Shown here piece by piece: positions 10,753-38,648 of a DNA stretch of 64,000 nt. Under the pieces are notes generated by a model that was given only the letters and a program-made list of their open reading frames with translations, was not told the DNA's origin and did no database searches. Position 1 is the first letter of the stretch, and each line of letters opens with the position of its first letter. This stretch comes from Marchantia polymorpha subsp. ruderalis (taxonomy: Eukaryota; Streptophyta; Marchantiopsida; Marchantiales; Marchantiaceae): NCBI GenBank assembly GCA_037833965.1, contig AP031358.1, positions 1,248,001-1,312,000 on the forward strand. The letters are read 5' to 3'. Position numbers and translations under genes: made by a program.

Positions 10753-10766
10753 AATCCACTTAGGGG

Positions 10767-14428: not shown

Positions 14429-14694
14429 AAGGTCGTTTGTTAAAAGAGAACTTACAATCTTGTTGTAAGTAATTGTTTGTCAATCAGTGTGGTAATCTAC
14501 TTTTTGTTTTTGTGCGGAATTTAAACATTTTTGAAAAACAGTACCGCAACAGCAACTGTAAATAGTAATCGATACACTAAAATAGAATTAAAATGGATGA
14601 TCGCGGATCCAGGAGAATCCTGGAGAATCATCGAGTTGGGCGCAATGTCGGGGACAGGCGCCCTGCCCCGAACGGACGGTTCCTACTGAGGGAA

Positions 14695-15215
14695 AGCGCC
14701 TTCGGCGATGTACGCCTTCGGCGGAAGAGTGAATCTCTCATAACTTTCTCAATTCGTAACGCCTTGACTTAGTTAAGGTCTTGTTGGAAAGAACTCGACA
14801 CGCTCGTCCTAACTAGCCCAAGAACTTTTATAACGAATAAGGGATCATTGAGTTATGAGTGTCGGAAGTTACTAATATGGGGCGCTTTCGGCGGAAAAAC
14901 GCCTTCGGGGCAGCGCCTTCGGTGATACGCCTTCGGCGGTGTACTCCTTCGCCTGAACGCCTTCGGCGCCAACGCATTGATATTAGGTCAACGCCTTCGG
15001 CGGTGCGACTTCGGCCGTACGCCTTCAGCGAAACGGAACACCTACGGCAAGAGCGCCTTCGGCAGGACAAGAAAGAACAATGGAAACGACAAGACGCATC
15101 GACTTTGGTCAACGCCTTCGGCGGAAGACGGACGCCTTCAGCCGTACGCCTTCGGCGATACGGAGAAAGTAAATCAGAAACCGGCCCGTGACGAAGTCCT
15201 TCGCCGCCACGCCTT
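14695..15215. repeat. array of CGCCTTCGGCG palindromes in B1
   Basis: About 17 exact or near copies of an 11-mer, CGCCTTCGGCG (an odd palindrome that can fold to a 4-bp stem with a 3-base loop), are spread at irregular spacing through the 5' part of B1. More occur within its ORF (17460-17745). Spacing is not periodic, so it is not a simple satellite. Confidence 0.9.
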
Positions 15216-15571
15216 CGGCGATGCGCGAGCAAGGCTAAATCGACGGACAACGGCAGAATCGAATTCAATTTTCAGGCGTGAGAGTTCGCACAACGGCGGA
15301 GCGTGAAGCCGAGCGTGCAAAGGAGGCCGTTACGCCTCCAAGCCGGCGCTGCAATCAAGTGGGTCGACCCCCACTCCCAAGTGTTGAACGGTGAAATCTT
15401 GATCGTCGAAGGCAGACGTCTCATTCTTGCAATTTCCATTTCGATTTCGCTCGAGCGTCGACCGCGAAGCAGGAAATCAGCGGAGAGAAATTAGAGAGAG
15501 TTGCGACTAGCGGGTTGTTGCAGGAGAGCGTGCAGCAGCTGAGTGCACAGCCAGAGGGTTCTTACTAGAGA

Positions 15572-18209
15572 GTGCGGGAAGCTCGCGGAGTGATTGAGTC
15601 CGCATGCAAGAAGCTTGGGGATAGAGAACGGAGAGTTAGCGGACTTCTGACGTGTATGGCCGAGTTCAAGAACGCGATGTTGAAGGCTACGCAGCTGCGG
15701 ATGATTCCGCTGAAGCTACCGCAGATTGGATTGCACGTATTCCAGCGCGAACTGACTGCGGTGAAACTCGATTTCCTCTTGTGGGGATGGAATTGGATGT
15801 GTCCGGATATGATATGAGAGTGGCTGCGGGACAAGGATCAACCTACGCGCGGTTTCCGACCGCACCCGGAGCGATGGGAATTCAGTGACTGGGAGCAAGT
15901 GTTAGGAAGATGCGGGGGAGAAGAATGCCATCTTCTTTTGGAGTGCGAGAGTGTCAATGTCTCGAAGGAGGAAGAAGCTTCCGTCGGGGCGCTGTTCAAG
16001 CATAGCAAGTCGAGCAAGAACGGGTAATGTAAGACCAGATATTACATGTGTGAAATAAAACTAGAATTAGCCAAGGAGTTAATCATGGTTAGAATAGTTA
16101 TGACTAAATCTAGCTAGTTATGACTTAGTCTAGCTAGTTTAGCTATAATGTCTATACTTGGCGGAATAACTAGGGAAGTTCTAGAAGATTTGAGTGAGCA
16201 CTTCTATTTTGTCTTGTACAAAAGTCTAGATTCCAAGAGAAAAGACTTTTGAACTTCATGTTTAGTTTTGATTGGTTTGACTAAAGTAAGGAGTATTTCA
16301 TTGGTGAGACTAAGTCTAATGTTGACTTAGTGGAAAGTGGAAGTTCTAGAAGTGGGAAAGGCACAAATGGCATGTCGCCACCTCAATCTAGGGATTAGTA
16401 AACATCTAGAAGGTTTAGGGGGCCAATGGCATGTTGCCACATATTGATAACTAGTCAACCTTACTATGGTTTATCTTCGTAAAAGTAAGTTAGATAGAAA
16501 TTACCATTTGTTACTATGGTAAATTCTCAAGTAGTATATATAGAGAGGTAGGGAAGAGACTCTCAAGCAAGTTTGGAGAGTTCATATGTAGAGACTTGTT
16601 TCATATATGAAAGAGTGACGAATTTTCAATACCTTAGAGTGTCGATGAGTGTATGAGTTGGAGTGATACCTTGAGAGATTGTGTGAGAGGGTGTTTAGCT
16701 TATGAGTATGATACGGAATCCTAGTCTTCTAGAATCATGATGAGCTACCGAAAAGCCATCTGAGGTAAACCTGAGTGAGAGTTAGCCCGGAGGTTGCAGT
16801 ACAAGATCCGTGACTACAAGGATCGCTTCCGTAAGAATGTCGCTGTAGCACTCATTCAACTCTTGCAGCCGCACCGGACCACCTACATAACTTCTTGGCA
16901 GGTGGGGTTCGTGGAGCTGGCGTTGTCCGGAGCTCCGATTCATTGGGCTTGCATTCTGTGGAAGGCGACGAGACAACATACATTCGAGGAGTAGGGAGTA
17001 TCGATCAATCACCTCTCCCCCTTCTTGATCAATTTCTATCGGTCGATGGGATGTTTGACCGCGACGGAACTGGTACAATTTCCATTGGTGTCACGCAGCA
17101 ATCCGGGCCGATATGTGAAGGACGTCGAAGTCCATACTGACGAAGACGAGACGTCCGCCTGCACGCCACCAGCTCAACCGAGGGCGGAGGAAGAACCGCT
17201 CGCAGCACGAGTGCCGCGGAAGCGGAAGTGGGAAGGAGAGGCGGAGCAGAGCCAGCAACGCGATGCTGCTGCTCCCAATTGAAAGCGGCCGATGACGGAG
17301 CTCTACAGTCGATCCAAGCAGAAGGCTCGCAGGCTCGTCCTACCAGCAAGCAGCGCAGAAACGGGAAGAGCTGCTGAGAGAAGAAACTCGCCATCCTCGG
17401 GGGAGGATGCGAGTGCACGAACTGCGGAGAGGTCAACGGACCTCCCTGCACCGAAGGCACGTACGCCTTCGGCGGAAGCGAGAAGGCCTTCAGATCAAGG
17501 AATACAACATGCGGCACCGACAAATGTGCCGACGACGGACAAGTGCTTCGCTTCCGAGCAAGTACCATTTGATGACTCGACTTCGGGTCAAGAGCCTTCG
17601 GCGCAACAGAGGAGTGAGGAGAAGCCTTCGGCTCAACGAACTTCGGGTCAAGCGCCTTCGGCGCAAGCCCCATGTGAGAGATCGACGACGGACGAAAGAC
17701 GGAAGGAGGAGACACGTGTGCCTTAGGCACAAGCGCCTTCGGCGGAAGCAGATCATGCAGGTGAAGCGGACTTGTCGGGAGCCGGATCTCCCACCGCATT
17801 GGACATTTTGGCGGGGAGTGGAGCGGCGGCCGCGACAGCAGAAGCCACGCAACCCAACTCCCGAGAATCGCCGGGAAATTTTGTGGCGACCGAGATCCTC
17901 AATTCAGAGGATGAAGAGGATGAGTCGAGTTCGGAGGAGCAGGAAAAGGAGTCGGTGCAAGGCACGCCGACAGGAGTCTTGTGCGAGCAGGTGGTACCCC
18001 TGCTGAGGTACCTTGATCGCAAGGTAGTGAAGTATGGTGATCCTCGCCATCGGGGGTTCTACGTCGAATTGGTGCCCAATCGGACGCGAACCAAGGTCAA
18101 GACAAGTCGTTTGTTGGCTTCCTTGGACGAGACAATCAAGGATTTGAGGTTGAAGAACGAGGCCCTGCGTGGACACCTCGCCATTTCGCGGAAGTTGCAA
18201 AAGGCGGTC
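15572..18209 (+). pseudogene. B1 long ORF, 5' portion, broken
   Basis: It is homologous along its length to the 863-codon ORF of B2. Conserved marks include LLWGWNW, RGFRPHPERW, VLGRC.GEE, GWQVGFVELALSGAPIHWA, LYSR.KQKAR, and SPTALDILAGSGAA with CEQVVPLLRYLDRK. A stop (TGA near 15815), frameshifts and a solo LTR at 16028-16798 break it. A gypsy element interrupts it at 18210. The remaining C-terminal portion resumes at 30983. It is therefore an old, dead copy. Confidence 0.85.
16028..16798 (+). mobile_element. solo LTR of gypsy family A
   Basis: 771 bp, TGTAAGACCA to GGAGGTTGCA, the plus-strand version of the LTRs at 18210-18980 and 30212-30982. It is inserted in the B1 ORF: KHSKSSKNG on the left continues as KIRDYKDR on the right. 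Flanks GGTAA and GTACA are not identical but can be aligned as GTA(C)A, so the target duplication is imperfect. No internal element sequence is left, as after LTR-LTR recombination. Confidence 0.9.
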
Positions 18210-18980
18210 TGCAACCTCCGGGCTGACTCTCACTCAGGTTTACCTCAGATGGCTTTTCGGTAGCTCATCATGATTCTATAAGACTAGGATTCCGCATCAT
18301 ACTCATAAGCTAAACACCCTCTCACACAATCTCTCAAGGTATCACTCCAACTCATACACTCATCGACACTCTAAGGTATTGAAAATTCGTCACTCTTTCA
18401 TATATGAAACAAGTCTCTACATATGAACTCTCCAAACTTGCTTGAGAGTCTCTTCCCTACCTCTCTATATATACTACTTGAGAATTTACCATAGTAACAA
18501 ATGGTAATTTCTATCTAACTTACTTTTACGAAGATAAACCATAGTAAGGTTGACTAGTTATCAATATGTGGCAACATGCCATTGGCCCCCTAAACCTTCT
18601 AGATGTTTACTAATCCCTAGATTGAGGTGGCGACATGCCATTTGTGCCTTTCCCACTTCTAGAACTTCCACTTTCCACTAAGTCAACATTAGACTTAGTC
18701 TCACCAATGAAATACTCCTTACTTTAGTCAAACCAATCAAAACTAAACATGAAGTTCAAAAGTCTTTTCTCTTGGAATCTAGACTTTTGTACAAGACAAA
18801 ATAGAAGTGCTCACTCAAATCTTCTAGAACTTCCCTAGTTATTCCGCCAAGTATAGACATTATAGCTAAACTAGCTAGACTAAGTCATAACTAGCTAGAT
18901 TTAGTCATAACTATTCTAACCATGATTAACTCCTTGGCTAATTCTAGTTTTATTTCACACATGCAATATCTGGTCTTACA
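18210..18980 (-). repeat. 3' LTR of element A
   Basis: 771 bp, plus-strand text TGCAACCTCC to GGTCTTACA. Near identical to the LTR at 30212-30982. Confidence 0.95.
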
Positions 18981-18997
18981 TTTACCCCCGGACCAAG
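18981..18997 (-). other. polypurine tract of element A
   Basis: Read on the minus strand, GGTCCGGGGGTAAA abuts the 3' LTR start TGTAAGACC. Purine-rich and in the expected place for plus-strand priming. Confidence 0.7.
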
Positions 18998-19003
18998 ATT
19001 TCA

Positions 19004-19469
19004 CTACGCCCTCGAAGTGAAAGAATCTGATCTTCGATGGAATAATTTGAACTTGTCGTGGTTGACTCGATCGAAGTGACGTCCTCCTAACTCCTTGATA
19101 TCATAAGTAAAGTTTCCCCACACCTTCTCAACTATGAAAGGTCCAAAATACTTAGGAAGAAACTTTTTCCTAGCTCTCTTGTATCTAATTGCATCAAAGA
19201 GCATCACCCAATCACCTTCCTTGAATGGCTTCAAGTTCTGGTTTCCACTTCGTTTGTCGTGATACTTCTTCTGCAACTGTTGAGCCCGCTCCTCTCGTAC
19301 CATGGCTAGTGCTCGAGCTTCCTCCAACTCCATCAATTGTTTTTGGCGAGACTTGATGGCTTCTGCTCCATTTGATTTCTTCAACCTTTGCTGGATTGTC
19401 ATGAAAGTAGTCAAGTCAAATTGTATTGGGAGCTTTGACTCAACTCCATACACCATCCGAAAAGGTGAA
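19004..19469 (-). pseudogene. element A integrase C-terminus
   Basis: The minus frame reads SPFRMVYGVESKLPIQFD, a helical stretch, then KPFKEGDWVMLFDAIRYKRA, FLPKYFGPFIVEKVWGNFTY and HFDRVNHDKFKLFH. This is the end of a gypsy integrase (TPFxLVYG motif and GPF/Y module). The upstream rest of the integrase is at 24593-25633, separated by B2. The stop is followed at once by the PPT and LTR. Confidence 0.9.
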
Positions 19470-19616
19470 CGTGGTAACACACTTTTTGTTATTTCGCAGA
19501 ATTTAAACAATTTTGAAAAAGAAGTACCAAAGCAGTGTCTGTAGTTAGGAAATGGTACGTTAAATAGAGTGAATTGAGGAGATCGCGAGTCACGAAGAAT
19601 CACGGAGTTGGGCTCA

Positions 19617-20345
19617 ACGGCGCCAAACGCCTTCGGCGCCTTCGGCAAGATCTCCTTTGCTGAGGTGTCTTTACCCAGGCGGCTCCGGCGCTTAGGGAAG
19701 GTACGCTTCCGGCACAGACACCTCTGGAGGAGATGTCGCTGAAGACGTCAGAAGCCGGCAAGGACCTCTGAATGCTTCCGACCAGGAGTGCACCTTCGGC
19801 GATGCGCCGTTGGCGCGGGAGAGAAACCTTCATAACGATCAGGATTCACGGTAGTTCTATTTGATTAAGGTCTCATTGGAAAGAGCTCGGGACGCTTGTT
19901 CTAACGAGCCCAAGAGCGCCGGAGATGGATCAGGCACGAGGAAGTTATGAGCATCGGTAAACTCGCATCCGGCGATGCGCTGTTCGCGCTAGGGTTCACC
20001 TTCGGGAAGGACCCCCGTACGCCTTCGGCGATGCGCCTTCGGCGGAACCACGCGCTCATGAGAGGAGATCAAGTCGGAGGCGGAAGCGCCTTCGGCGGCT
20101 GTGCGGCGGGAGAGAAGCGCCGACCTGATGTACGCCTCCGACGTGGCGCGGACAGGCGGATGCGCCGGCATAATTCGCGCCGGCGGGATACGCGCCGTCG
20201 GCGATATGCGGGGCAGAACGGACAAAAGAAGTCGTACAAGTACGTGTCGGCGTAATTCGCGCCGACTTGATGTGCGCCTCCAGCGAGGCGCCGACGGAGA
20301 AGGAGTACGCCTTCGGCGATATGCCTCTGGCGATAGGCAGGTTGG
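19617..20345. repeat. CGCCTTCGGCG-type palindromes in B2
   Basis: The 5' part of B2 holds repeated CGCCTTCGGCG, and relatives such as GCGCCGACG and ATACGCGCC, at irregular spacing, matching the array in B1. GC content is well above the flanking A element. Confidence 0.8.
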
Positions 20346-20941
20346 GAAAAGACAACATAGTCGGAGCGTACGCTCCACTGCGGCGAACTCGAGGCCGGAA
20401 GCCCTCGGCGATGACGAACTCAGAGCCGGCGGACGATGGCGGCGGGAGAATTCAACGTTCACGCATGCGAATGCGCGCAGTGCGGAGTCGTGAATTCGAG
20501 CATGCGAGGGAGGACCGTTAGGCCGTATAGCCGGCTGCGTAATCAAGTTTGATTGTACCCACTGCCTACGAAGAGCGTTGTGCGATCTTGATTTCTGAGA
20601 AGAAAAGTTTGCTCTCCACTCTCATTCTCTCATTCTTGATTGTGAGTTTTCCAGCTTCAGAGCTTGAGACGTGCAGCTCAATCGGGCGGAGAGACCTTCA
20701 GTGAGTTGGAGAGAGTGCAGGAATCAGTGAGCAGGAAGGAGTGCGTAGCAACCAGGCGCACGAAGGCGAATTTCGCGAGGATCTTGACGGACCCTGCAGA
20801 GAGTTTGAGAGTAGAGAAATTGAGCGCGCAAGGGAGGAGAGAGCAATTTCAGTTAGTGTTTGAGCGGCCGACGCGCAGCGGCGATTGTGAGAGATCGAGT
20901 GGGAGGGAAGAGCGTATGTGTGTGCACGGAGAGCAAGAAAT

Positions 20942-23509
20942 ATGTCGAAGGTCCCCCAGCTACGAGTGTCTCCACTCAGAGTGCCGCAGATCGGTTTGCG
21001 CGCATTCCAGGATGTGTTGACAAGGTTGAAGCTTGATTTCCTCCTGTGGGGATGGAATTGGACGTGTCCGGAGATGGTGCGCGAATATTTGCGGGAGAAA
21101 CACCAGCCCGCGCGCGGATTCCGCCCCCACCCAGAGAGGTGGGACATTAGTCATTGGGCGCAGGTATTAGGAAGGTGTGCAGGCGAGGAAGGGTATCTCC
21201 TCTTCGAGGCCGAAAGCGTGAAGGTGTCGAAGGAGGAAGAGAACTCCTACAATGATCTTTTCAAGGTTGGCAAGCATCCCAAGAACGGCTTCCGGACACG
21301 GGATTACAAAGATCGATTGCGGAGAAATGTCGCGACGGCATTGCTTCAAATATTGCAGCCGACCAAGACCGCCTACATGCATGGTTGGCAAGTGGGATTT
21401 GTGGAGCTAGTGTTGTCAGGAGCTCCTGTTCATTGGGCACGGCTCCTGTGGACGGTGACGCGCCAACATGCGCAAGAAGAGAGAGGAGGGACCCTCAATC
21501 ATCTTTCGCCTTACCTGATCGTGTTCTATCGAGCGATGGGATGTTTGACAGCTTCAGAGCGGGCGCGATTTCCGCTGCTGACCCGGAGTAATCCGGGTAG
21601 ATACTTGCGGGAGGCTGAAGTGGACACAGATCTGGACGAAGCACCTGCCAATCCAGCTCCAGCTCCGGCTCCGGCAAGAGCAGAAGAAGAGCATCGAAGT
21701 GAGCACGCACCGCGGAAGCGGAAATGGGATGAGAGACCAGAAGACAGGCAGCCGGAAGCTCCCGCTGCGCCGACTCGGAGTCGGCCAACCCACGAGCTTT
21801 ACAGCCGGCCGAAACAGAGGGCACGTAAGATGGTGTTGCCAACTAGCAGTGCGGAGACCGGGCATACTCTAGTCCGGCGGAATGTCCTGCCCACGCAGGA
21901 GGAGATAATCGCGCAGGTTCTGGGGAGGTCGATGAACCTCTCTGCGCAGAAGGCGCGGATGCCTTCGGAAGAAGTCAGGCGAACTGAGAGTCGGCCGACT
22001 GCGAGTCGGGCGACTGAAGGTCGGCCAACTGCAGGTCGGCGAGAACAGCGTGTTGAACCGGACAGCAGGCCGGAAGCAGAAGAGAGTTTGGCTGCAGAGC
22101 CAACGACTCTCAGAGAGTCGTCTTCGGAAGAAGACGCTTCTGAGGAAGCGCCTCCAGCAAAGCGACCAAGTGGAGTGAAGACATGCAGAGTGGATCCGAC
22201 TGCCAATCGGACAACTGCTAGTCGGCAGACTGCGAGTCGGTCAACTGAGAGTCGGCCAGATTCGCCGACTGCGAATCGGATAGACCCGGCGACCATTGTG
22301 CGGGCGCCTTCGGCGGACACACCTCCGGCGAAGACACCTTCCGCGCAGATCGCGCCGGAGGAGCAGGCAGTAGAAGTGGGCGGTGCAGAGGCGACAAGAG
22401 TGACTACGGCGCCGACCCCTTCGAGAACAGGAGATCAAGTCGGAGCGGAGGCTCAGGCAGTGGGATCCCCCACTGCCTTGGATATCTTAGCAGGGAGTGG
22501 AGCGGCAGTCGCGGCGGAAGCTGCCACGCGCCACAGTTCAAGGGAGTCGCCAAGAGCTTCTATGGCGACTGAAATCCTCGAAACAGAGGATGAGACGAGT
22601 TCGGAAGAACAGGAAGCGGACTCTGTGCATGGGACGCCAACAAGGGTACTGTGCGAGCAGATAGTGCCACTCTTGCGATATTTGGATCGCAAGGCAGCAA
22701 AGTACGCGAATCCTAGAAAACCGCAGTCTTATGTGGAGTTAGTCAAGAACAAGACGAGGAACAAGGTGGCCATTTGGGCCACTAGGTGCCAAACGTTGGA
22801 GATGAAGAATACTGCCCTCCAACAGCACCTGGCGATCACGAAGAGGCTACAACAAACCCTTCAACAACAGCGTGAGAATGCGGCGATGAAAGCCCAGGAG
22901 GATGTCGAGCTAATGCGGGCAAGGATTGAGTTGGAATTGCAGGAAGAGCGGAGACAAAACCGCATTCTAACAGAGGAGCTTGCGCGCCAGACGCGCGCAT
23001 TAGAGCAAGGTCAAAGCACGCGCAAGGCGGATGAGGAGTTGTTGCGCAACTTGCAATCCGAGTGCGCGGAATTGAGGGCGCAGCGCGCGGAGGCGGAGAT
23101 GCAGCTGACAGAGGTGGAAGGCAGCAGCCGGCGCGATGCGGATCGTACGCGAGAAGAGTTGGTGGCGCGGGTGACCCACTGTCTCAGAGGATACACCCAC
23201 TGGGAAGTGGCGGCGCAAGAGAAGATCACACTCAGGGAGTTTGAGCTTCGGGCGGCGGCGTTGACGGAGGGTGACAGTCGGAGTCGGCGGCGAGTGGCGA
23301 AGAAATTAGAGGCCTTCTTGTCGGGTGCGCGCGATACTATGGCGCACTTGGAGTCGGAAGTGACCGGGGTCCTTCGGCGGCTGGGGTTGCGCAGCCGAGC
23401 GGAAGACTGGCAGGGTAGGGAGATAGTGCGCGGCAGTCCGTCGCGCAGAAGGCGCAGTACTGGATCTGCAGAGTGCAGTAGTGTAGCTTGGTTCCGTGCA
23501 GGCGTTTAG
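20942..23509 (+). CDS. B2 long ORF, unknown protein with coiled coil
   Basis: Open from 20918; I prefer ATG at 20942 because homology to B1 begins there. The first ~220 residues are a compact conserved domain rich in W and R (LLWGWNW, RGFRPHPERW, QVLGRCAGEE, WQVGFVELVLSGAPVHWARL, YLIVFYRAMGCLT). About 225-560 is disordered, charged and repetitive (ESRPTASRATEGRPTAGR, TASRQTASRSTESR). Then comes CEQIVPLLRYLDRK, a long coiled coil (about 605-770), and a basic tail ending RGSPSRRRR. No RT, RNase H, integrase, protease, zinc knuckle or transposase motif is seen. It could be a gag-like structural protein of a non-autonomous element. It resembles weakly (by eye) plant-transposon-associated proteins with GxxVxWAxLL...YL..LY..MG. 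Function is unknown. Confidence 0.7.
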   Translation: MSKVPQLRVSPLRVPQIGLRAFQDVLTRLKLDFLLWGWNWTCPEMVREYLREKHQPARGFRPHPERWDISHWAQVLGRCAGEEGYLLFEAESVKVSKEEENSYNDLFKVGKHPKNGFRTRDYKDRLRRNVATALLQILQPTKTAYMHGWQVGFVELVLSGAPVHWARLLWTVTRQHAQEERGGTLNHLSPYLIVFYRAMGCLTASERARFPLLTRSNPGRYLREAEVDTDLDEAPANPAPAPAPARAEEEHRSEHAPRKRKWDERPEDRQPEAPAAPTRSRPTHELYSRPKQRARKMVLPTSSAETGHTLVRRNVLPTQEEIIAQVLGRSMNLSAQKARMPSEEVRRTESRPTASRATEGRPTAGRREQRVEPDSRPEAEESLAAEPTTLRESSSEEDASEEAPPAKRPSGVKTCRVDPTANRTTASRQTASRSTESRPDSPTANRIDPATIVRAPSADTPPAKTPSAQIAPEEQAVEVGGAEATRVTTAPTPSRTGDQVGAEAQAVGSPTALDILAGSGAAVAAEAATRHSSRESPRASMATEILETEDETSSEEQEADSVHGTPTRVLCEQIVPLLRYLDRKAAKYANPRKPQSYVELVKNKTRNKVAIWATRCQTLEMKNTALQQHLAITKRLQQTLQQQRENAAMKAQEDVELMRARIELELQEERRQNRILTEELARQTRALEQGQSTRKADEELLRNLQSECAELRAQRAEAEMQLTEVEGSSRRDADRTREELVARVTHCLRGYTHWEVAAQEKITLREFELRAAALTEGDSRSRRRVAKKLEAFLSGARDTMAHLESEVTGVLRRLGLRSRAEDWQGREIVRGSPSRRRRSTGSAECSSVAWFRAGV

Positions 23510-24551
23510 AGTAGCAGGTAGTGCAGCGTAGTGTTAGTTAGGACCTTAGAGGGTATAAAGTAGTTCAAGGCGTTTTGCCTTGGGATTCTTCCACTTTCGG
23601 AAGTGCAGATCAGGAACTCACTTTCTCTGCGTGTTTGTGTGTTTAGTTCTTTCACCACGCAAGAGGAGCTACAGCTTGACGAAGGTACCGTATTTTGTAG
23701 CTGAAGGCCTTCGGCTGAATGTTCAGAGCTAGTATACCGGTTAGAGACTTGAGTAGTGTGGATCTACACCTGCGGGTGATTGCCGATGCTCAGAGCCGGT
23801 TGCGAGTTAGAGACTTGAGCAGTTCCCCCTTACACCTTCGAGTGATTTATCCTGATTGTACTCCTACAGGACGTTTCCCCTGAATGCCAAAGTGAAGTTT
23901 TGTTACTTCGTGTAAACCTTGGTTATCAATTCAGGTTACGCTGCAGAAGGCACCCTCAGGGCACACCTCTGTAGTAATTCTAGGAATGACAAGTGCCTAA
24001 GAATTCAAACTCTTCAATAGACTGTTATGGTGTGTGTGTTACTGGATTGTGTCTCAGTTGAGTTTCTCAGTCGGGCCTGTATTCTCTACGCTTGGTGTGA
24101 GTTGAGGGTGACGTCCACCGCGTATGAGTGACTTCGTTCCGAAGTGGGAAGTCCAATCCGGGTTCCCTGCGCTAGCAGAAACTAGCGGAAGGGTTGTAAA
24201 AGCCGGAGTGGGAGTCACTACCTGCAGAGCCTTTGAATGTACTTTTGAGAGACTTTCCCCCTGAAATCCTAAGCGGAGGTCCTGACCGACCTCCGAGTTG
24301 TGCTTTTCCAGTTTCAGGTGTGTGTGTTGAGTGACTTACGCTGCACTGTGCATCCTCCGAGTTGAGCATCCTCCGAGCGGCCTCCGAGTTGAGCACTTGC
24401 AGTATTTCTGGGAGTGACAGTCGCCTGAGAATTCAAACTCTCCAAAAGTCTGTTAAACGTGACACTTTGTACTCTGTGTGTTGCCTCTGTCCCTGTGGGT
24501 TCGACCTTTTTACCACCATACTGCAGTTTTAGCCTTTGGTGGGTTATTACA
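23510..24551 (+). other. 3' region of B2 with internal near-repeats
   Basis: Non-coding, about 1 kb, collinear with 31590-31759 plus 37797-38648 in B1. It holds partial repeats (TTAGAGACTTGAGcAGT and ACACCT.CG.GTGATT at about 23742-23840; ATTTCTgGGAgTGAC at about 23970 and 24400; TCCGAGTTGAGCA at 24357 and 24382). It ends in CCTTTGGTGGGTTATTACA. Confidence 0.7.
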
Positions 24552-24592
24552 TAAGGAGCCGACGACTTCTTTTTGATCCAAGATGTATCCAT

Positions 24593-26892: not shown

Positions 26893-26928
26893 GGTAACAT
26901 TTGGACCAAACCTGAGGGTGGAAAGTCT

Positions 26929-29106: not shown

Positions 29107-29535
29107 TCAGTCCGAGCTTGAACCCGCTGAGGTGATTTTCTCCGTTTCAGCACTTAGCTTGCCGTCAAACCCTTCCACAAGTGATTCTAGAAGAGCCTTC
29201 ACTCCGCTGCATTCGTGTCCCGCCGGTAGTCCAATCACTCCGCAATTGTCACAAAAGGTTGCACTTTGGGATTCATGTGGCAATGATGGTCCCAAGTGAA
29301 GTTTCAAATCTCCCAAGGTTCTCTTGCTCCTCAATCTTCTATCCTTGTTCCGCAGTGAACAATTGACAACCTTATGTCCCTCCTCTCCACAATAAAAGCA
29401 AGTCTCACGTTTCACTCTTGGGGATTGATTAACTACTCTTTCTTCAAATTCCACCTTGAATTCTCTTGTATTGGAGTCTAGAGACACTATAACATCCAAA
29501 CCTTGAGGTACTTTCCAGCCCCCTTGATCACTCAT
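29107..29535 (-). CDS. small zinc-knuckle ORF at the start of element A
   Basis: A 142-codon minus frame upstream of gag, with CFYCGEEGHKVVNC (a proper CCHC knuckle) and a second metal-site-like TFCDNCGVIGLPAGHEC. Elements of this class sometimes carry an extra ORF before gag. No other domain is recognised. The 29536-30189 stretch to the PBS is an untranslated leader with no clear frame. Confidence 0.6.
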   Translation of the reverse strand: MSDQGGWKVPQGLDVIVSLDSNTREFKVEFEERVVNQSPRVKRETCFYCGEEGHKVVNCSLRNKDRRLRSKRTLGDLKLHLGPSLPHESQSATFCDNCGVIGLPAGHECSGVKALLESLVEGFDGKLSAETEKITSAGSSSD

Positions 29536-30189
29536 TTTTCCATAAGGTGGAAACCACTCAAAAGGTCTATCCAGAAACGTTATCTACTGGGCCAAAACTT
29601 CGAATAAAGAAACCCAAAACTTTTGCTATCTTATCCTGATTTTGTACCCCCTAAACTTCAAATCATCATAACTTCGTCTCTAGACATGATCTCTCAGTAA
29701 ACTTTTGACTCACACGTAGGTAATCTTCAAATACACACGCGTACGAAGTTTCAAAGCCTAACTTGAAATACACAAAAAGAAATTTACTCTGTACAAACTT
29801 TCCAGAGAGCAAACTTTTGGTACCCGTGAAAACCCCCTCAACTTTTAACTCTCATATCTTTCTGTTAACACATGATCTAGACCTGAAACAAAACGTAAAT
29901 GTTCTCTATCTTCCACTCTAAAATCAATAAAAACTTTGAAAAATACTTTCAAAAATACTTTTTCGGTGTCTAAGATCACTTTTCTCTCAAAAAGACCTGT
30001 TTACGTGTACAAAACGTACAAAATCACTTCTAGGCTATCATATGAGACTATTGGATAAACAAAGGGAATTTCGCTCTCAAGCACACTCTCCGCTCTTTCA
30101 TTCCCCAATGTTAACACCAAGTGATCCCTCATGGATACTTTCTCTCAAGCTAGAAATCGAATCCTAAACATTCCGCCTTCTAGATTGAG

Positions 30190-30207
30190 GTCCCGGCAAC
30201 GGAACCA
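30190..30207 (-). other. primer-binding site of element A
   Basis: Read on the minus strand, TGGTTCCGTTGCCGGGAC follows the 5' LTR after four bases. It is complementary to a tRNA 3' end of the form GTCCCGGCAACGGAACCA, which fits tRNA-Glu by my memory of that tRNA. Confidence 0.75.
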
Positions 30208-30211
30208 AAAA

Positions 30212-30982
30212 TGCAACCTCCGGGCTGACTCTCACTCAGGTTTACCTCAGATGGCTTTTCGGTAGCTCATCATGATTCTAGAAGACTAGGATTCCGCATC
30301 ATACTCATAAGCTAAACACCCTCTCACACAATCTCTCAAGGTATCACTCCAACTCATACACTCATCGACACTCCAAGGTACTGAAAATTCGTCACTCTTT
30401 CATATATGAAACAAGTCTCTACATATGAACTCTCCAAACTTGCTTGAGAGTCTCTTCCCTACCTCTCTATATATACTACTTGAGAATTTACCATAGTAAC
30501 AAATGGTAATTTCTATCTAACTTACTTTTACGAAGATAAACCATAGTAAGGTTGACTAGTTATCAATATGTGGCAACATGCCATTGGCCCCCTAAACTTT
30601 CTAGATGTTTACTAATCCCTAGATTGAGGTGGCGACATGCCATTTGTGCCTTTCCCACTTCTAGAACTTCCACTTTCCACTAAGTCAACATTAGACTTAG
30701 TCTCACCAACGGAATACTCCTTACTTTAGTCAAACCAATCAAAACTAAACATGAAGTTCAAAAGTCTTTTCTCTTGGAATCTAGACTTTTGTACAAGACA
30801 AAATAGAAGTGCTCACTCAAATCTTCTAGAACTTCCCTAGTTATTCCGCCAAGTATAGACATTATAGCTAAACTAGCTAGACTAAGTCATAACTAGCTAG
30901 ATTTAGTCATAACTATCCTAACCATGATTAACTCCTTGGCTAATTCTAGTTTTATTTCACACATGCAATATCTGGTCTTACA
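30212..30982 (-). repeat. 5' LTR of element A
   Basis: 771 bp, TGCAACCTCC to GGTCTTACA in plus-strand text. About seven single-base differences from 18210-18980, so the insertion is fairly recent. Confidence 0.95.
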
Positions 30983-31589
30983 TGTCAACAAGGCGCGTGA
31001 TGAGAAGTTGGACGAAGCGGAGAAGTAATTTGCGAAGTAGTGGGTGAAGCTCGCGGAGGATCTCGATTTTGAGCAAGCTCAGAATCGCATATTGTCAGAG
31101 GAGCTCGTGCGACAGACACGGTTACTAGATCAGTGTCAGAGTGCACGTCAAGCCGATGAAGAGTTAATTCGTCACATGTAATCGCAGTGCGGCGAATTGA
31201 GAGCGCAGCATGCAGAGGCAGAGCTGCAACTGGTAGAGGTTGAAGGCGATCGCCGGCGCGCGACAGATCGCACGCGGGAGGAGTTGGCAGAGCGAGTGAA
31301 CTGCTGCCTCAGAGGTTACACTCATTGGGAAGTGGCTGCGCAGGAGAGAATCACACTGCGCGGGTTAGAGATTCGTGCGGCGGAATTGATGTCGGGTGAC
31401 AGTCGGAGCCGACGACGGGTCGCGAAGAGGTTAGATGCTTTTCTGTCGAGGTCACGAGACGCCATTGCGAACCTCGAGGCAAAGGTGACCGAGGTACTTC
31501 GGCGGCTGGGGTTGCGCAGCAGAGCCGACGACTGGTTGGATAGGGAGTTAGTGCGCGGTAGTCCGTCGCGCAGGAGACATAGCAGATGA
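30983..31589 (+). pseudogene. B1 long ORF, 3' portion
   Basis: It resumes the frame cut at 18209: NKARDEKLDEAEK, stops near 31027 and 31038, then AQNRILSEELVRQTRLL, LRAQHAEAELQLVEVEGD, CCLRGYTHWEVAAQERITLR and EVLRRLGLRSRADDW. This is the coiled coil and basic tail of the B ORF. Three in-frame stops make it dead. Codons from 31197 are open to the normal end. Confidence 0.9.
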
Positions 31590-31759
31590 CGTGGAGTGTA
31601 GTGTAGTGTAGAGTGTTAGGTAGTTAGGACTTAGGAGGTATAAAGTAGTTCAAGGCGTCTTGCCTTGGGATTCTTCTAGTTTCGGAAGTGCAGATCAGGA
31701 ACTCATTTTCTGTGCGCGTTTGTGTACTTAGTTCTGTCAACGCGCAATTGGAGCTACAG

Positions 31760-32174
31760 TGTAACACTAGGGTTTAGAGAGAAGTTCACTCGAAGATAGA
31801 AACGTAAACTCTGAAGATGAGAGATACCAACAATTGTTCTCCTCTCCCCTATATAGCTCTCACCAACAAGTACAAGGTGATAAGATCTAATCTCCACCAT
31901 CCATCCCACTCCTAGTGGATGAATGACGTGGCGGATAACCCTAACAAGCACACGGATCGCTGACGTGGCGCACCCAACTAACACACTAACTAACACACTC
32001 AATCCTTACCTACAAGCACACGGATTGCTGACGTGGCACTGTCAACTAACACATCCACTCTGTACCTACCAAGTGCGCGGATCGCTGACGTGGCAGCTAT
32101 GACTAGTGCACACTAAAGTATCTACATCAATATTCAGAGTAACCTCTACTTTAGTTCTAACTAACTAAAGTACA
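31760..32174 (-). repeat. 3' LTR of element C
   Basis: TGTAACACTAGG to AACTAAAGTACA in plus-strand text. Contains three near-copies of CACGGATcGCTGACGTGGC. Confidence 0.95.
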
Positions 32175-32190
32175 AACCTCCCTCCTTTTA
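32175..32190 (-). other. polypurine tract of element C
   Basis: Minus-strand TAAAAGGAGGGAGGTT directly precedes the 3' LTR start. Confidence 0.8.
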
Positions 32191-32226
32191 AGATGCAACG
32201 ACCTTGTTGCACATACGTTCAAACTC

Positions 32227-32739
32227 CTAAACTATCAAAGGTGCATTTGCTAAATTTTTAGCTGATTCCCATGTTGATTCATACGATGGATAGCATTTCC
32301 ATTGAATCAAATACTCTAGTTTGGGATATTTATGACCTCGAATACGTTTCTTGAGTATCTTTTCTACCTCAAACTCCTCATGATCTGCTATCAAGGTTGG
32401 AAGAGGAGGTGGTGCTGGTTGGTTGGTGAATTGTTTTGGTCGTGGTACATGTTTTCGCAATCGTGCCACATGAAATACTGGATGTATTTTCATATGTGAC
32501 GGAAGTTCCAACTTGTATGACACTTCACCAACACGATTCAAAACCAAAAATGGACCAATGAACCTAGGGTTTAACTTTGGTGTTCCTACAAGAGACAAAT
32601 TCGTTGTAGATAACCAAACATGATCTCCAACCTCAAAAATCACCTCTCTACGATGAGCATTGGCATGCTGCTTTTGCCGATTTTGAGCTATCACCAACTT
32701 CTCCTTGGCCTGATGTAGTCCTCGGTGAATATGCTCCAC
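32227..32739 (-). pseudogene. element C integrase end with chromodomain
   Basis: The minus frame has NAHRREVIFEVGDHVWLST, LNPRFIGPFLVLNRVGEVSY (GPF module) and then a chromodomain: EEFEVEKILKKRIRGHKYPK followed by LEYLIQWKCYPSYESTWE. The aromatic cage positions (Y, W) seem kept. In chromoviruses this domain steers integration to methylated histone H3 chromatin. Confidence 0.9.
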
Positions 32740-32973
32740 GAATTCGTTGACTGCTGCAACTTTGGTCGAAAACTACTCTCCTTTGGGAAGTTTCATCAAA
32801 CTTGAAGTAGTTATAGTATGAGCTCCATACATAAGAAAAAATGGAGACACTTTTGTGGATGCATTAACAAAATTGTTATATGCAAATTTCACAAGTGGCA
32901 AAAGGTTGTCCCACTCTTCTTGCTCTTCTAATGTGAATGCTCGTAGCATATCCTCTATGGTCCTATTTGCCCT

Positions 32974-33270
32974 CTAAGTTTGTTCATCAGTTTGAGGGTG
33001 ATAGGCCGTTGACATTGCTAGTTTTGTTTTGAAAAAACTAAACAAAGTTTTCCAAAATAAACTAGTGAAGTGAGTACCTCTATCCGTGATTAACACTTTG
33101 CCTAAGCCATGATTCACAAAAACTGCATCTAGATACAATTGAGCTAGTTGTGGAGCTGTTACTGTTTTTGTGGTTGGCCTGATGTGAATCATCTTGCTCA
33201 ATTTGTCCACAAAAACCACCACTGAATCATGTCCTAACGAAGTCCTTGGTAACTCGCATACAAGATCCAT
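32974..33270 (-). pseudogene. element C integrase core
   Basis: The minus frame starts MDLVCELPRTSLGHDSVVVF, then VDKLSKMIHIRPTTKTVTA and LITDRGTHFTSLFWKTL, ending AYHPQTDEQT and a stop (a catalytic-region AYHPQTDGQTE in relatives). It carries the first and second catalytic Asp positions. Joined by overlap in another frame to the zinc domain. Confidence 0.85.
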
Positions 33271-33554
33271 GGTGACATGTTCCCACCGCTGTTCGGGAAT
33301 AGGAAGAGGTTGTAATAAACCCGCTGGTTTTTGACTGGTTTACTTGCCTTGTTTTGTTGACAAGCAACACAACTTCGAACATAAGACTCCACATCCTCAC
33401 GTATTTTGGGCCAATAGTACACTCGTTGTATATTCTCCACGGTTTTCTCCACTCCCACATGACCTGCAATGGCTGTATCATGACTTTCTGCCAAAATCAT
33501 TGTGAGCAAATCGTGATCTTGTGGAATCCATATACGCTGATTGTAAAACGCCAA
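33227..33554 (-). pseudogene. element C integrase zinc domain
   Basis: The frame 33234-33554 reads IWIPQDHDLLTMILAESHDT, AGHVGVEKTVENIQRVYYWP and YVRSCVACQQNK, the H2C2 zinc domain of gypsy integrases (H-H-C-C all visible). Confidence 0.85.
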
Positions 33555-33557
33555 ACC

Positions 33558-34298
33558 TCAAGATTTCTCTGCCTTTCCAGTTTGTAGTGCTCGAGTGATC
33601 TCTTCATACTCCTTTGTGGCTTGTGACATCTTGCTCCACCAATCCGCCTGAATTTTCACTTCTGCAACATGATTCAAACAATGTATGCGTGTGAGAGCAT
33701 CTGCAAGTTGCTTCTTTTCCTCCACGTAGACAATCTTCATGTTGAAGCGTTGACGCCACTCTGCCCATCGAATTTGTCGTTTGGACAAATCCTTCTGAGT
33801 TTCCAAATAAACCAAGGGTTTATGATCAGTCTCTACCACAAACTTCTTATCACCCAAATAATGCTTCCAATGTTTGGTTGCCAACACGATGGTTAACTCC
33901 TCCCGTTCTGTCGTGTGATAATTTTGTTCCGCTGCCACCAACTTTCAAGAATAGAAAGCAACTGGATGCCATCCATCCTCCCATTCTTGTTGAAGTATGC
34001 CACTCACTGTTGTACCTGATGCATCAGTGGCCAACTTGATAGAACGGTTAGGATCATACCACTTGAGAATAGGTGCGTGTAACAAAGCATCTTTCAATGC
34101 TTGAAAAGCTAACTCTTGAGCTGTTCCCCATCTCCACTTTTGACCTTTCCCTAACATGGAAGTCAAGGCCTGAGCTAGTCGAGCAAAATCTTTCACAAAT
34201 CTACGATAGAATCCAATGAGCCCTAGAAAACTCTTCAATTGAGTTTGATCCTCAGGTGCTATCCATTTCTGAATGGCATCTATCTTCTCACTCATCAC
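33558..34298 (-). pseudogene. element C RT thumb and RNase H, two frames
   Basis: 34298-33945 has FLGLIGFYRRFVKDFARLAQ, ALKDALLHAPIL and IKLATDASGTTVSGILQQ. After a break, 33941-33558 has VAAEQNYHTTEREELTIVLA, FVVETDHKPLVYL and RQIRWAEW. Together they are RNase H with catalytic TDAS, TERE and TDH. One stop (about 33943) separates them. Confidence 0.9.
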
Positions 34299-35616
34299 TT
34301 CTTGTAGCTGTAACTCTATGACCCAAGTAATCTACTTCTGACTTGCCAAATTCACATTTTGAAGCTTTGGCATACAATTGATTGTCTCTTAAAACTTGAA
34401 GTACCTCTCGTAAATGACTTCTATGATCACTCAAAGTTTTGCTATACACCAATATATCATCTAGAAAAACAATGACAGATTTATCTAGATAAGGGTGAAA
34501 GATATCGTTCATCAATCCCATGAATGTAGCAGGTGCATTAGTGAGATCAAAAGGCATCACCAGATACTCAAAGTGTCCATACCTAGTACGAAAAGCTGTC
34601 TTGTGAACATCTTCATCTGCAATTCGAATTTGATTGTAGCCGCTTCTCAAATCTAGCTTGGTGAAGTACTTCGCTCCTTGAAGTTGATCAAACAAATCAT
34701 CCATACGAGGTAATGGATATTTTTTTTTCACCGTTTGCTGATTCAACCCGCGATAATAGATACATAGTCTCATGGATCCATCCTTCTTCTTCACAAAGAG
34801 TACTGGAGCTCCATAAGGTGAAACACTTGGTTGAATGAATCCTTTGCTCAACATCTCCTCCACTTGAGCTTTGCATTCTTCCAATTCGTTTGGAGCCAAA
34901 CGATATGGAGCTTTGCAAGTTGGTGTACTTCCAGGTATCACCTCAATCTTATGATCTACTCGCATCTTTGGTGGTAATCCTGCAGGTAGATCATCTAGAA
35001 AAACATCTTTATACTCCATAAAAATGTCGTTCAAGGACTCCGGGATGTAAGGTTTGTCTGTGGACCCAATATCTCTTATAAGTCCAAGGAAACATACATC
35101 ATCTCTAGAAATGGATGCTGTATCCATCACAAAGAGGGGTAAATTCCTATTCTGAGATCTAATTCTATCTCCATAGATCTTCCATCCACTACTTGTAATC
35201 ACTTTTCTTCTCCAATCTACCTTCAGATTATATTGTTCCATCCATGGCATTCCAAGGATGACATCATATCGAGCTAAACGAATTACTCTCAATTCAATGC
35301 TCTCCTTGTATCTACCTATGGATAATTCTACACTCCGTGGTAGTGTTTCTATCACTTTTGTTTGCCCGTTTGGCAATTCAACTTCTTCACTCACGTCATT
35401 CATCAATATCAAACCTAACTTCATAGCAACACTCCTTGATAGAAAATTCTCAGTTGCTCCAGGATCAATTAAAACTCTCACCTTGTGTTCTTCCATGAAA
35501 CCATCCGTGACAATGAGTTGAGCTTGCTTCTTACTCCTTCCATGAGCTCCCAACCATTGCCTTCTTCCAACCTCGCCTTTTCTTCGCTTTGTAGAACCAG
35601 TAAGGCCGCGAGGCAA
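34288..35616 (-). pseudogene. element C protease and reverse transcriptase
   Basis: A 442-codon minus frame: retropepsin motif [13 protein letters not shown], then [15 protein letters not shown] with [54 protein letters not shown] (first Asp), [17 protein letters not shown] and FLDDILVYS (catalytic DD). Unusual residues are IYYRGLN where DYRALN is normal (the D is lost) and MPFDLTNAP for MPFGLTNAP, signs of decay. Confidence 0.9.
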
Positions 35617-35734
35617 GATTACTGGTGATCTTCGTTTCCCGAAACTGCTTCCTCCACCTCTTCATACTCTATCCCCTCCATATTGTTGAACGGTCGTCGC
35701 TGCATGGGCCGTCCTCCTTGTTGTGTCGGCCGAA

Positions 35735-36451
35735 CTCGACAAAACTTGGCTATGTGACCCATTCGTCCACATGCATAGCATTGGCGATTGTCACGAACTC
35801 CAGCTCCTCCTCAAACCATTCCATTATTTGCATAACCTTCTTGCAAATTTGGAACTCCTGGTCGCCTAATCTCACCTCCAAATCTTGGTGGTGGTCCTCT
35901 TGTTGTGCAAAACCTTCTCTACGTCGAAGGTTTCCCAACTCCATCGGTGTTGGATCAGATGGATCTCTAAAATTGCTCACTGGTTCACCGTGTGTGACAC
36001 CAAAAGCACCCGAAATTCGTTGAGCAATTGCGATTGCTTCATTCACAGTAGATGGATTGCTTACCATCACCTCCTTTCGAATTCGATCTTTCAAGCCTCG
36101 TTTGAACACGTCCAATGCTTCAGCTCCACTCATATCCATGATAGATACTTGAAGATCACGAAATTCTTCAATGTACTCATGAATACCTCTTTTTTGCTTC
36201 AGATCCCACAACTTCATTCTTGCAGTTTGAAAAGAATCCACCGCTTGAAAATTTTGCAGAAGTCCTTCCTGCATTCCACTCCACAAAATGATAGCACCTC
36301 GTTCTGAAAGCATTCTCTCCCATGTTATGTACCATGTGAGAGCCTTATCCGTAAGATAAGATATCATGAACATTCCTGCAATATAATCAGAAACATGAAA
36401 ATGGGATAAATGAATATTCATCCTCATAATCCATCCCTCTAACACTCCCAT
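35735..36451 (-). pseudogene. element C gag with zinc knuckle
   Basis: The minus frame 36451-35750 is a capsid domain (YLTDKALTWYITWERMLSER, LWDLKQKRGIHEYIEEFRDL, FKRGLKDRIRKEV). A shifted frame continues into a clean knuckle CYACGRMGHIAKFC at about 35740-35785. A short frame at 36562-36762 with an acidic helix is the probable gag start. Confidence 0.85.
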
Positions 36452-37363
36452 TACTCTACATTACAGGATTTTCCCATTCGAAGCAAAAGATTTGCTTGAT
36501 CTTCAATCTCTTGAAGACGTCTCCTATTTGCCTCTGCTGCATCAATAGGAGTTGGTTCTGGCTAAACTTGGGAAGCTTGAACTTGAGGTTCAACTTCCAT
36601 CTCTCCAACTCTCTCTCTCTCTACTTTCTCACTCTCTAATGCGAAAATTTTATCTTCCATGGCTTGCTGCTTGGTATGCCCATCTACTATCGCTTTTCTC
36701 AACTCCTTCATCTCCGCCATGATTGCATTGAGAACCTCACCCATATCAATTGATGTTCCCATGCTTTCTCACACTCCCTCTAATAAAAAGTGAGTATAAT
36801 CACTATGTGACCTCTCAACAAAGGAGTCACAAAAGGTGCAGATGACTCTATCACAGCTCTATAGTACTCCTCTCCATAATTCCTCACAAGAAAATCTCTC
36901 CATATCCTCTTCTGTCTATATACTGTTCTAATCTCTACATAAGTGCTGAATCAAACCGGGACAGGTGGTTCGCGATTCAAATCCATGAAACAATCAGTAT
37001 AGAATGTATATAGTACAATCCCAAGTCTCTCCATAAGTAACTATTGGAAGAATCAGTGGCACTCTTGACTCCATCACTCTAGTCATAAAATCTGCACCCC
37101 AACAAGCCACAAGGTACATCCAAAAATGATGTTTCTCCATGCAACGAAGGTGAATATCGAATAGGTTAGGAATTGGCCAGTGCGGTACTGGATTCCTGTC
37201 AATCCCGTCCATATCTGCAAAAACACAATTTCCCCCTTCCACCTCTCTCTACATGCAGATGAATGAGCTCTGCCAGCCTCTATACACTCTCAAGACTACA
37301 CTCTATCATCACTCACTTGCTATTCCATGAGGGATAATCCACACTCAAGGAAAGAGCAAGATC

Positions 37364-37375
37364 GCTCTGATACCA
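37364..37375 (-). other. primer-binding site of element C
   Basis: Minus-strand TGGTATCAGAGC, one base from the 5' LTR end, complementary to the 3' end of plant initiator tRNA-Met. Confidence 0.95.
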
Positions 37376-37376
37376 T

Positions 37377-37796
37377 TGTAACACTAGGGTTTAGAGAGAA
37401 GTTCACTCGAAGATAGAAACGTAAACTCTGAAGATGAGAAATACCAACAATGGTTCTCCTCTCCCCTATATAGCTCTCACCAACAAGTACAAGGTGATAA
37501 GATCTAATCTCCACCATCCATCCCACTCCTAGTGGATGAATGACGTGGCGGATAATCCTAACAAGCACACGGATCGCTGACGTGGCGCACCCAACTAACA
37601 CACTAACTAACACACTCAATCCTTACCTACAAGCACACGGATTGCTGACGTGTCACTGTCAACTAACACATCCACTCTGTACCTACCAAGTGCGCGGATC
37701 GCTGACGTGACAGCTGTGATTAGTGCACAATAAAGTATCTACATCAATATTCAGAGTAACCTCTACTTTAGTTCTAACTAACTAAAGATGGTTACA
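37377..37796 (-). repeat. 5' LTR of element C
   Basis: Matches 31760-32174. About eight substitutions, plus a 5-base gain near the outer end (ATGGT before TACA). Confidence 0.95.
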
Positions 37797-38648
37797 TACA
37801 GCTTGACAAAGTTACCGCATTTTGTAGCTGATGGTCTTCGGCCGAATACTCAGAGCTAGTGTGCTGGTTAGATACTTGAGCAGTTGGGACCTACACCTGC
37901 GGGTGATTGCTGAATGCTCAGAGCTAGCGGACTGGTTAGACACTTGAGTAGTTCGATCTTACACCTTCGGGTGATTGTTCCTGTTTGTACTCCTTCGGGA
38001 TTTTTCCCTTGAATGGCAAAGTGAAGTTTTGTTACTTAGAGTAAGCCTTGGTTGTAAATTCAGGTTACGATGTAGAAGACGCCCTCGGGGCTAGCCTCTG
38101 CAATATTTCTGGGAATGACTAGTGTCAAACTCGTCAATAGACTGTTATGGTGTGACACTGGATCTTTTCTTAGTTGAGTTTCTCAGTTCAGACCTGTATT
38201 CTCTGCGCGTTTTGTGAGTTTAGTGTGTTGTTCACCGCGTGTGAGTGACTTCAGTTTGACGAAGGTACCGCATCCGAAGTAGAAAGTCCAACCCGGGTGC
38301 TCTATTCTAGCCGTCGGAGTTAACAATCCGGAGTTGGGGAACACTACCTGCAGATCCTCTGAATGTACTTATGAGAAACTTTCCCCCTGAACCTTGAGCG
38401 GAGGTCCTAATCGACCTCTTAGTTGTGCTTTTCCAGTTTCAGGTGTGTGTTGGGGTGAACTACGCTGCACTGTGCGTCCTCCGAGTTGAGCACTTGCAGT
38501 ATTTCTGGTGGTGACAGTCGCCTGAGAATTCAAACTCTTCAATAGTCTGTTAAACGTGACATTTAGTACTCTGTGTGTTGCCTCTGTCCCTGTGGGTTCG
38601 ACCTTTCTGCTGCTATACTGCAGTTTTAGCCTTTGGTGGGTTATTACA

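What the first reader, a model, noticed from the sequence alone, without database searches (positions are those of the whole stretch)
14489..38648. Unclassified transposon-like family B with one unknown long ORF, two copies
Two collinear copies (B1 14489-38648 with inserts, B2 19470-24551) share sharp ends (TGTGGTAATC / CGTGGTAACAC and GTTATTACA), a palindrome-rich leader, one ~860-codon ORF and a ~1 kb 3' part. B1 has an ATCAG/ATCAA flank, like a target duplication. No RT, integrase, transposase or LTR pair is visible, so it fits no standard class I or II structure. It could be a non-autonomous retroelement whose ORF is an unknown structural protein.
Basis: partly seen in the sequence, partly recalled or inferred. 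Interest (0 to 1): 0.8.

Follow-up and report, generated by a model that had tools for sequence, protein, structure and literature searches.

The report
Giant liverwort LTR carrying a gene
The "unclassified" repeat is the 5-kb terminal repeat of a Ty3/gypsy retrotransposon in a Marchantia-like liverwort; what is unusual is that this repeat holds a long, selectively maintained protein gene of unknown function.

Summary
The two copies are real, but family B is not unclassified: it is the 5.08-kb long terminal repeat (LTR) of a Ty3/gypsy retrotransposon in a Marchantia-like liverwort. Elsewhere in the genome it has TG...CA ends with exact 5-bp target duplications (9 of 13 delimited copies), a tRNA-Asp primer site after it, a polypurine tract before it and gag-pol between. 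B1 is most likely a solo LTR with three later insertions; B2 is a 5' LTR with 24 bp of internal DNA, inside another gypsy's integrase. What is unusual is the 855-codon ORF, wholly inside the LTR, ending 45 bp before its only TATAAA, so probably in U3. A related family with a complete 16.6-kb copy has an open homologous ORF at the same place. Third-position bias, frame-keeping indels and dN/dS 0.21-0.32 between subfamilies show selection for protein. The protein has no recognised domain. I read it as a U3-encoded accessory gene: a new variant of the additional ORFs of plant gypsy elements. Expression and function are inferred, not shown.

The parts
19470..24551 (+). B2: complete LTR (5,082 bp), 5' LTR of a lost element
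   Evidence: Ends fixed by other genome copies; followed by the spacer that leads to the primer site in six other loci.
24552..24575 (+). first 24 bp of the element's internal region, the rest missing
   Evidence: Alignments extend to 24575 in L020, L021, L022, L025, L026, L028.
20942..23509 (+). LTR ORF, 855 codons
   Evidence: Open frame; selection on protein.
19470..20941 (+). U3 leader, rich in GCCTTCGGC
   Evidence: 6 of the 22 window copies of GCCTTCGGC lie here; indels of any length between subfamilies.
23554..23559 (+). TATAAA, the only one in this LTR; likely promoter of the element RNA
   Evidence: At the matching place in 7 of 7 aligned LTRs, families B and C. Promoter function is inferred.
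23585..24551 (+). inferred R-U5 (start approximate)
   Evidence: Downstream of the TATA box; 80-93% identical between B and C in 100-base steps except one step at 63%.
14488..38648 (+). B1: LTR of a second subfamily, probably a solo LTR, in pieces (about 14488-16021, 16800-18208, 30984-31756, 37788-38648)
   Evidence: Collinear matches to B2, ATCAG/ATCAA flanks.
16022..16799 (+). solo LTR of G1's family, opposite orientation to G1, inserted in B1
   Evidence: 99.4% to the complement of 18209-18987.
18209..30983 (-). gypsy G1 inserted in B1; B2 lies in its integrase
   Evidence: LTRs 18210-18981 and 30212-30983, 99.1%; protease and integrase Pfam matches.
31757..37787 (-). gypsy G2 inserted in B1
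   Evidence: Terminal repeats 31757-32170 and 37374-37787, 97.8%; RT and protease.

Best explanation
Family B is the 5.08-kb LTR of a Ty3/gypsy retrotransposon without chromodomain. The complete element is about 16 kb: LTR - tRNA-Asp primer site - gag-PR - stop - RT-RH-INT - polypurine tract - LTR. Shown: this anatomy, the selection on the LTR ORF, and its place upstream of the conserved TATA box. Inferred: element RNA starts just after the ORF in the 5' LTR and ends in the 3' LTR, so it reads R-U5-gag-pol-U3(ORF)-R; reverse transcription then copies the gene into both LTRs, and it stays behind in every solo LTR. Inferred, less sure: the protein is made from a subgenomic RNA or from a promoter in the U3 leader and acts as an accessory factor (in the nucleus or on the RNA particle) that helps the element replicate, as has been proposed for the additional ORFs of Grande and Retand. 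The gene may have reached the LTR when the polypurine tract came to lie before an ORF that once stood between pol and the 3' LTR.
For: LTR: sharp ends, TG...CA, exact 5-bp duplications in 9 of 13 delimited copies, none in the two that run on into the primer site. Primer site in 6 of 6 loci, 18 of 18 bases complementary to the 3' end (with CCA) of a tRNA sequence found 29 times in the genome, one tested and called tRNA-Asp(GTC). Polypurine tract before the LTR in L022, L023, L031. On C1-C3, 39 of 97 primer-site junctions have a polypurine junction on the same strand within 7 kb, 37 of them at 5,763-5,802 bp; 2 on the opposite strand. gag, PR, RT, INT fragments in the B copies L026+L031 and L028+L029. 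Family C: complete copy, LTRs of 5,390 bp, 2 differences in the 1,766 bp and 0 in the 57 bp held of both, full gag-PR and pol frames. ORF: B2 against L023 differs at 97, 102 and 203 of 829 sites by codon position, 4 of 4 indels multiples of three; leader control 95, 91, 65 and 16 of 19 not. dN/dS 0.21-0.32 against six more distant copies, 0.43-0.44 against two close ones. ORF at the same place in family C, open for 1,045 codons.
Against: No RNA or protein evidence at all. 8 of 8 other full-length B-type ORFs carry 1-4 stops, so most copies cannot make the protein. The sequences were open segments, which favours coding-like comparisons, and dS near 2 makes the family C values rough. The rise in B-C conservation begins about 200-380 bp before the TATA box, inside the last part of the ORF, not at the box. 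The only complete copy read through both LTR ends is of family C; for B the complete structure rests on junction spacing and on nested copies. No domain, fold or homologue gives the function.
Confidence: 0.8

Rival explanations
1. B is a separate non-autonomous element with its own ends, moved in trans by other elements.
For: Copies without internal region are the majority of exact 3' ends: 495 of 2,355 are followed by the primer-site spacer.
Against: The same ends are joined to primer site, polypurine tract and gag-pol at a fixed spacing. TG...CA with 5-bp duplications is what LTR-LTR recombination leaves.
Confidence: 0.03
2. B is an LTR, but the main RNA start lies upstream of the ORF, so the ORF is in R and is the first gene of the element RNA.
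For: A pyrimidine-rich stretch near 20610-20660 could be part of a TATA-less promoter (sequence; motif recalled). The leader folds slightly better than shuffled sequence (z -2.3, 1 of 20 shuffles as good).
Against: The only TATAAA of the B2 LTR lies after the ORF and is kept in 7 of 7 LTRs. An R of several kb at both RNA ends would be unusual (recalled).
Confidence: 0.12
3. B is an LTR and the ORF is a captured passenger gene without a role in transposition.
For: 8 of 8 other full-length B-type copies are broken; faster change (dN 0.47) than PR (0.23) or RT (0.06) between B and C.
Against: Selection between subfamilies and the same ORF at the same place in families B and C; 53 relatives found, none of them a recognised host gene family.
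Confidence: 0.06

Closest known systems
[not shown]
   Same: Ty3/gypsy, present in Marchantia, native RNase H only, no additional RNase H, no chromodomain found.
   Different: No tree was made here, so membership is open; the passages read say nothing of an ORF in the LTR.
Additional ORFs of plant gypsy elements: Grande gene23, Retand/RIRE2 TRP28 ORFs (PMC7264820, parts 1-2 of 3 read; PMC11963269, passages)
   Same: A long, family-wide ORF of unknown function besides gag-pol, next to the 3' LTR.
   Different: Those are in the internal region and antisense, with PF04195 in most Retand clusters; here the ORF is sense, inside the LTR, in two copies per element, with no Pfam match.
Retrosat2 / RIRE3 / RIRE8 with ORF0 (PMC3485330, passages)
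   Same: Long LTRs (over 3.2 kb) and an extra, fast-changing ORF.
   Different: ORF0 lies between the 5' LTR and gag.
Ogre elements (PMC6431247, passages)
   Same: Very long LTRs (1.9-6.5 kb) and extra ORFs.
   Different: The extra ORFs are in the internal region.
sag gene of mouse mammary tumour virus (recalled)
   Same: A protein gene within U3, so present in both LTRs.
   Different: An animal retrovirus with an unrelated protein; likeness of layout only.

Membership tests
Ty3/gypsy LTR retrotransposon | Two direct LTRs with TG...CA ends and a target duplication | tested here: met
   Family C copy: both LTRs 5,390 bp by their ends, GTGTG on both sides, though within a GT run. B: 9 of 13 copies with exact 5-bp duplications.
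Ty3/gypsy LTR retrotransposon | Primer site after the 5' LTR and polypurine tract before the 3' LTR | tested here: met
   The primer site begins about 22 bp after the LTR.
Ty3/gypsy LTR retrotransposon | gag, PR, RT, RNase H, integrase in this order | tested here: met
   for family C (the PR matches are below the curated cut-offs); for B fragments.
Solo LTR (B1 and most copies) | One LTR flanked directly by the target duplication | tested here: met
   9 exact of 13; B1 4 of 5; L015 3 of 5. B2 is not one: it runs on into internal DNA.
Tat/Athila (OTA) lineage | RT tree position | not tested
   No reference RT sequences at hand; suggested by host and layout only.
Tat with additional RNase H | Second RNase H domain | tested here: not met
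   One RNase H region in 946 aa of pol.
Chromovirus | Chromodomain after the integrase | tested here: not met
   No Pfam match at E 0.01.
Retand-type additional ORF | Antisense ORF with PF04195 between pol and the 3' LTR | tested here: not met
   ORF is sense, inside the LTR; pol stops 37 bp before the 3' LTR in family C; no Pfam match in 17 relatives at a credible level. The genome search for PF04195 had silent controls.
Env-like additional ORF | Transmembrane segment | tested here: not met
   Highest 19-residue hydropathy 1.22.
Non-autonomous LARD/TRIM element | LTRs around an internal region without gag-pol | tested here: not met
   gag-pol is present.
sag-like U3 gene (works like) | ORF lies within U3 | tested here: inconclusive
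   It ends 45 bp (B) and 37 bp (C) before the TATA box; RNA ends were not mapped.

The most novel reading that the evidence does not exclude
A clade of liverwort gypsy elements has moved a selected gene into its LTR, so that each element carries it twice, and LTR-LTR recombination, which normally deletes every gene of an element, leaves a free-standing gene copy. Young solo LTRs would then supply the protein in trans, making solo LTRs part of the element's life cycle.
Probability: 0.2. Interest if true: 0.8.

Novelty: new variant of a known kind. Interest (0 to 1): 0.55.

Why it matters
LTRs are usually treated as non-coding. Here a selected gene of 855-1,045 codons lies inside the LTR of a family with more than two thousand exact LTR ends in one genome, and relatives of it stand as hypothetical proteins in public Marchantia annotation. 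It is a clean case for asking how accessory genes of plant gypsy elements move between internal region and LTR, and what solo LTRs can still express.

Tried and rejected
Terminal inverted repeats or an LTR pair within B2: only short internal matches. Known domains: Pfam with B2 alone found none and with 17 relatives nothing credible. PDB by sequence: one match at E 0.1, over the low-complexity middle. Two structure models were poor overall (mean pLDDT 50.0 and 52.9; in the second, residues about 91-130 reach 74-91 in ten-residue means); PDB searches with both models and a viral-structure search with the second had no match at E 0.001. Likeness to the element's own gag: nothing by profile comparison, from a shallow alignment. 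Transposase_32, Transposase_28 and PMD were sought in the genome because the N domain reminded me of them: no match, but the controls were silent too, so this says little. Rfam: nothing at the gathering scores in 14000-39000. Paper searches for an ORF inside an LTR or for this family listed no such plant case; the library holds open-licence papers only, and most listed papers were seen as listings.
Full report
Where it is. The window is C9:1248001-1312000 of a 241-Mb genome in nine contigs. Of 53 protein relatives, 44 are named from Marchantia polymorpha subsp. ruderalis and 9 come from an unnamed source. I take the host to be a Marchantia-like liverwort; the genome itself is unnamed, and the best-matching relatives are at 88% identity or less, so the exact species is open.

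What the window holds. B2 (19470-24551) lies inside gypsy G1, in its integrase: the - strand integrase frame ends at 24593 and its C-terminal part resumes below 19470. G1 (18209-30983, LTRs 99.1% identical over 772 bp), a solo LTR of G1's family (about 16022-16799) and gypsy G2 (31757-37787, terminal repeats 97.8% over 414 bp) all lie inside B1 (14488-38648). So B1 is the oldest layer and B2 is younger than G1. B1 and B2 match over the main blocks at 67-79%.

B is an LTR. I fetched 20 of the 39 other listed hits for the first 601 bases of the ORF, mostly from the top of the list, so they lean towards copies like B2. Seven of the 20 align in one piece from 19471 to about 24551; the others are interrupted or truncated. 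Of 13 copies with both ends delimited, B1 and B2 included, 9 have an exact 5-bp duplication, B1 has 4 of 5, L015 3 of 5, and B2 and L028 none. B2 and L028 instead run on into TAAGGAGCCGAC. In six of six loci with that extension (L020, L021, L022, L025, L026, L028) TGGCGCCGCTGCCGGGGA follows. These 18 bases are complementary to the CCA-tailed end of a tRNA whose 3' part, GGTTCGATCCCCGGCAGCGGCG, occurs 29 times in the genome; one of the 29 was tested and is tRNA-Asp(GTC). At the other end, a polypurine tract stands right before TGTGGTAACAC in L022, L023 and L031.

Complete elements. Exact counts in the genome: 2,355 for TTTGGTGGGTTATTACA, 495 for that end plus the spacer, 327 for tract plus LTR start; reversed controls 0 in each. 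On C1-C3, for which both listings are complete, 39 of 97 primer-site junctions have a polypurine junction on the same strand within 7 kb: 2 at 3,438 bp and 37 at 5,763-5,802 bp. Twelve more have one at 8-30 kb, perhaps through nested inserts, and 46 have none within 40 kb; on the opposite strand 2 have one within 7 kb. So most exact B ends are solo or truncated LTRs and a minority belong to complete elements. Exact patterns make all counts lower bounds. For scale, PMC9985172 gives 222 full-length LTR elements for M. polymorpha (passage).

Family C. A related LTR family shares the last 1.4 kb of B at about 81-83% and gives a complete copy on C8:1640761-1657336: LTRs of 5,390 bp, internal 5,796 bp, GTGTG on both sides, within a GT run. 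I hold 1,766 bp and 57 bp of its 5' LTR; they differ from the 3' LTR at 2 and 0 places. It has a 943-codon gag-PR frame and a 946-codon RT-RH-INT frame, with Pfam matches to gag, zinc knuckles, RT, RNase H and integrase above the cut-offs, PR below them, and no chromodomain. The two frames are in one register, separated by TAG CAATTA. The same junction stands in L026 and L028 (B) and L021 (C-like); the pattern was not found in the four other loci scanned, L020, L029, L033, L035, which may lack this part. TAG CAATTA is the readthrough context known from tobacco mosaic virus (recalled).

The ORF. B2's ORF is open for 855 codons. Against L023, of another subfamily, differences by codon position are 97, 102 and 203 of 829 each and 4 of 4 indels are multiples of three; the leader of the same two copies gives 95, 91, 65 and 16 of 19 indels that are not. 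Nei-Gojobori dN/dS of B2 against the eight sequences tried: 0.28 (L023), 0.24 (family C), 0.29 (L034), 0.22 (L020, - strand), 0.21 (L026, - strand), 0.32 (L033), 0.43 (L035), 0.44 (L025); the N domain alone 0.13-0.25. These were open segments; dS is near 2 for the C-type sequences, so those values are rough, and one sub-comparison (L020, middle) had no estimate. In 8 of 8 other full-length B-type ORFs there are 1-4 stops: copies decay after insertion, while the lineages that keep replicating keep the protein. Between B and C the ORF changes faster (dN 0.47) than PR (0.23) or RT (0.06). Family C's ORF is open for 1,045 codons from a Met shared with two other C-type copies.

Where in the LTR. 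The only TATAAA of the B2 LTR starts 45 bp after the ORF stop; in family C it starts 37 bp after. It is at the matching place in 7 of 7 aligned LTRs; L018 has a second one far upstream. In 100-base steps B and C are 9-69% identical up to 23170, 70-73% to 23370, and 80-93% from there to the end except one step at 63%; the rise thus begins inside the last part of the ORF, before the TATA box. I place the ORF in U3. In family C the pol stop lies 37 bp before the 3' LTR, so nothing else is coded between.

What the protein may be. It is basic (pI 9.3), without a transmembrane-like stretch, with an N domain of about 240 residues, an Ala/Glu/Arg-rich middle and a Glu/Arg/Leu/Gln-rich C-terminal part that looks like a coiled coil (no coiled-coil program was run). 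No Pfam, PDB or fold match is credible. A role as accessory factor is by analogy with Grande gene23, a nuclear protein, and the TRP28 ORFs of Retand (PMC7264820, parts 1-2 of 3 read; PMC11963269, passages).

Known or new. Very long LTRs and additional ORFs are both known in plant gypsy elements. In PMC7264820 and in the passages read of PMC6317226, PMC3485330, PMC6431247 and PMC11963269 the additional ORFs lie in the internal region. I saw no description of a conserved long ORF wholly inside the LTR of a plant element, in a library limited to open licences; a description elsewhere may exist. I file it as a new variant: a Ty3/gypsy element, perhaps of the Tat side (no tree made), with its accessory gene in U3.

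Noticed in passing
L032 near 5316 (- strand), L028, L026:9108, L021:9605: gag-PR and pol are in one frame separated by TAG CAATTA, in both families B and C: the leaky-stop context known from tobacco mosaic virus (recalled), suggesting pol is made by stop-codon readthrough.
   Followed up: partly
14698-23715: GCCTTCGGC occurs 22 times in the window against 0.32 expected, 22 of 22 on the + strand and inside B1 or B2; it can form a small GCC/GGC hairpin.
   Followed up: partly
G000:C1, about 2.26, 2.65 and 3.02 Mb: The same pair of primer-site junctions 25,993-25,995 bp apart recurs three times: a large duplicated block or an assembly artefact on the 5.6-Mb contig.
   Followed up: no
window 1940-3700 with 54720-56560; 10222-11144 with 61505-62361; 8516-8784 with 63735-64000: Duplicated stretches, some inverted, on either side of the nested transposons, including frames that look like NB-ARC and lipase-like genes (by eye).
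   Followed up: no
P0001-P0053: 44 of 53 relatives of the LTR ORF are public M. polymorpha hypothetical proteins; they are probably LTR-derived gene models.
   Followed up: partly
C8:1640761-1657336 (L031, L032, L037): The family C copy lies inside the U5 part of another LTR of this group (flanks): these LTRs nest in one another.
   Followed up: partly
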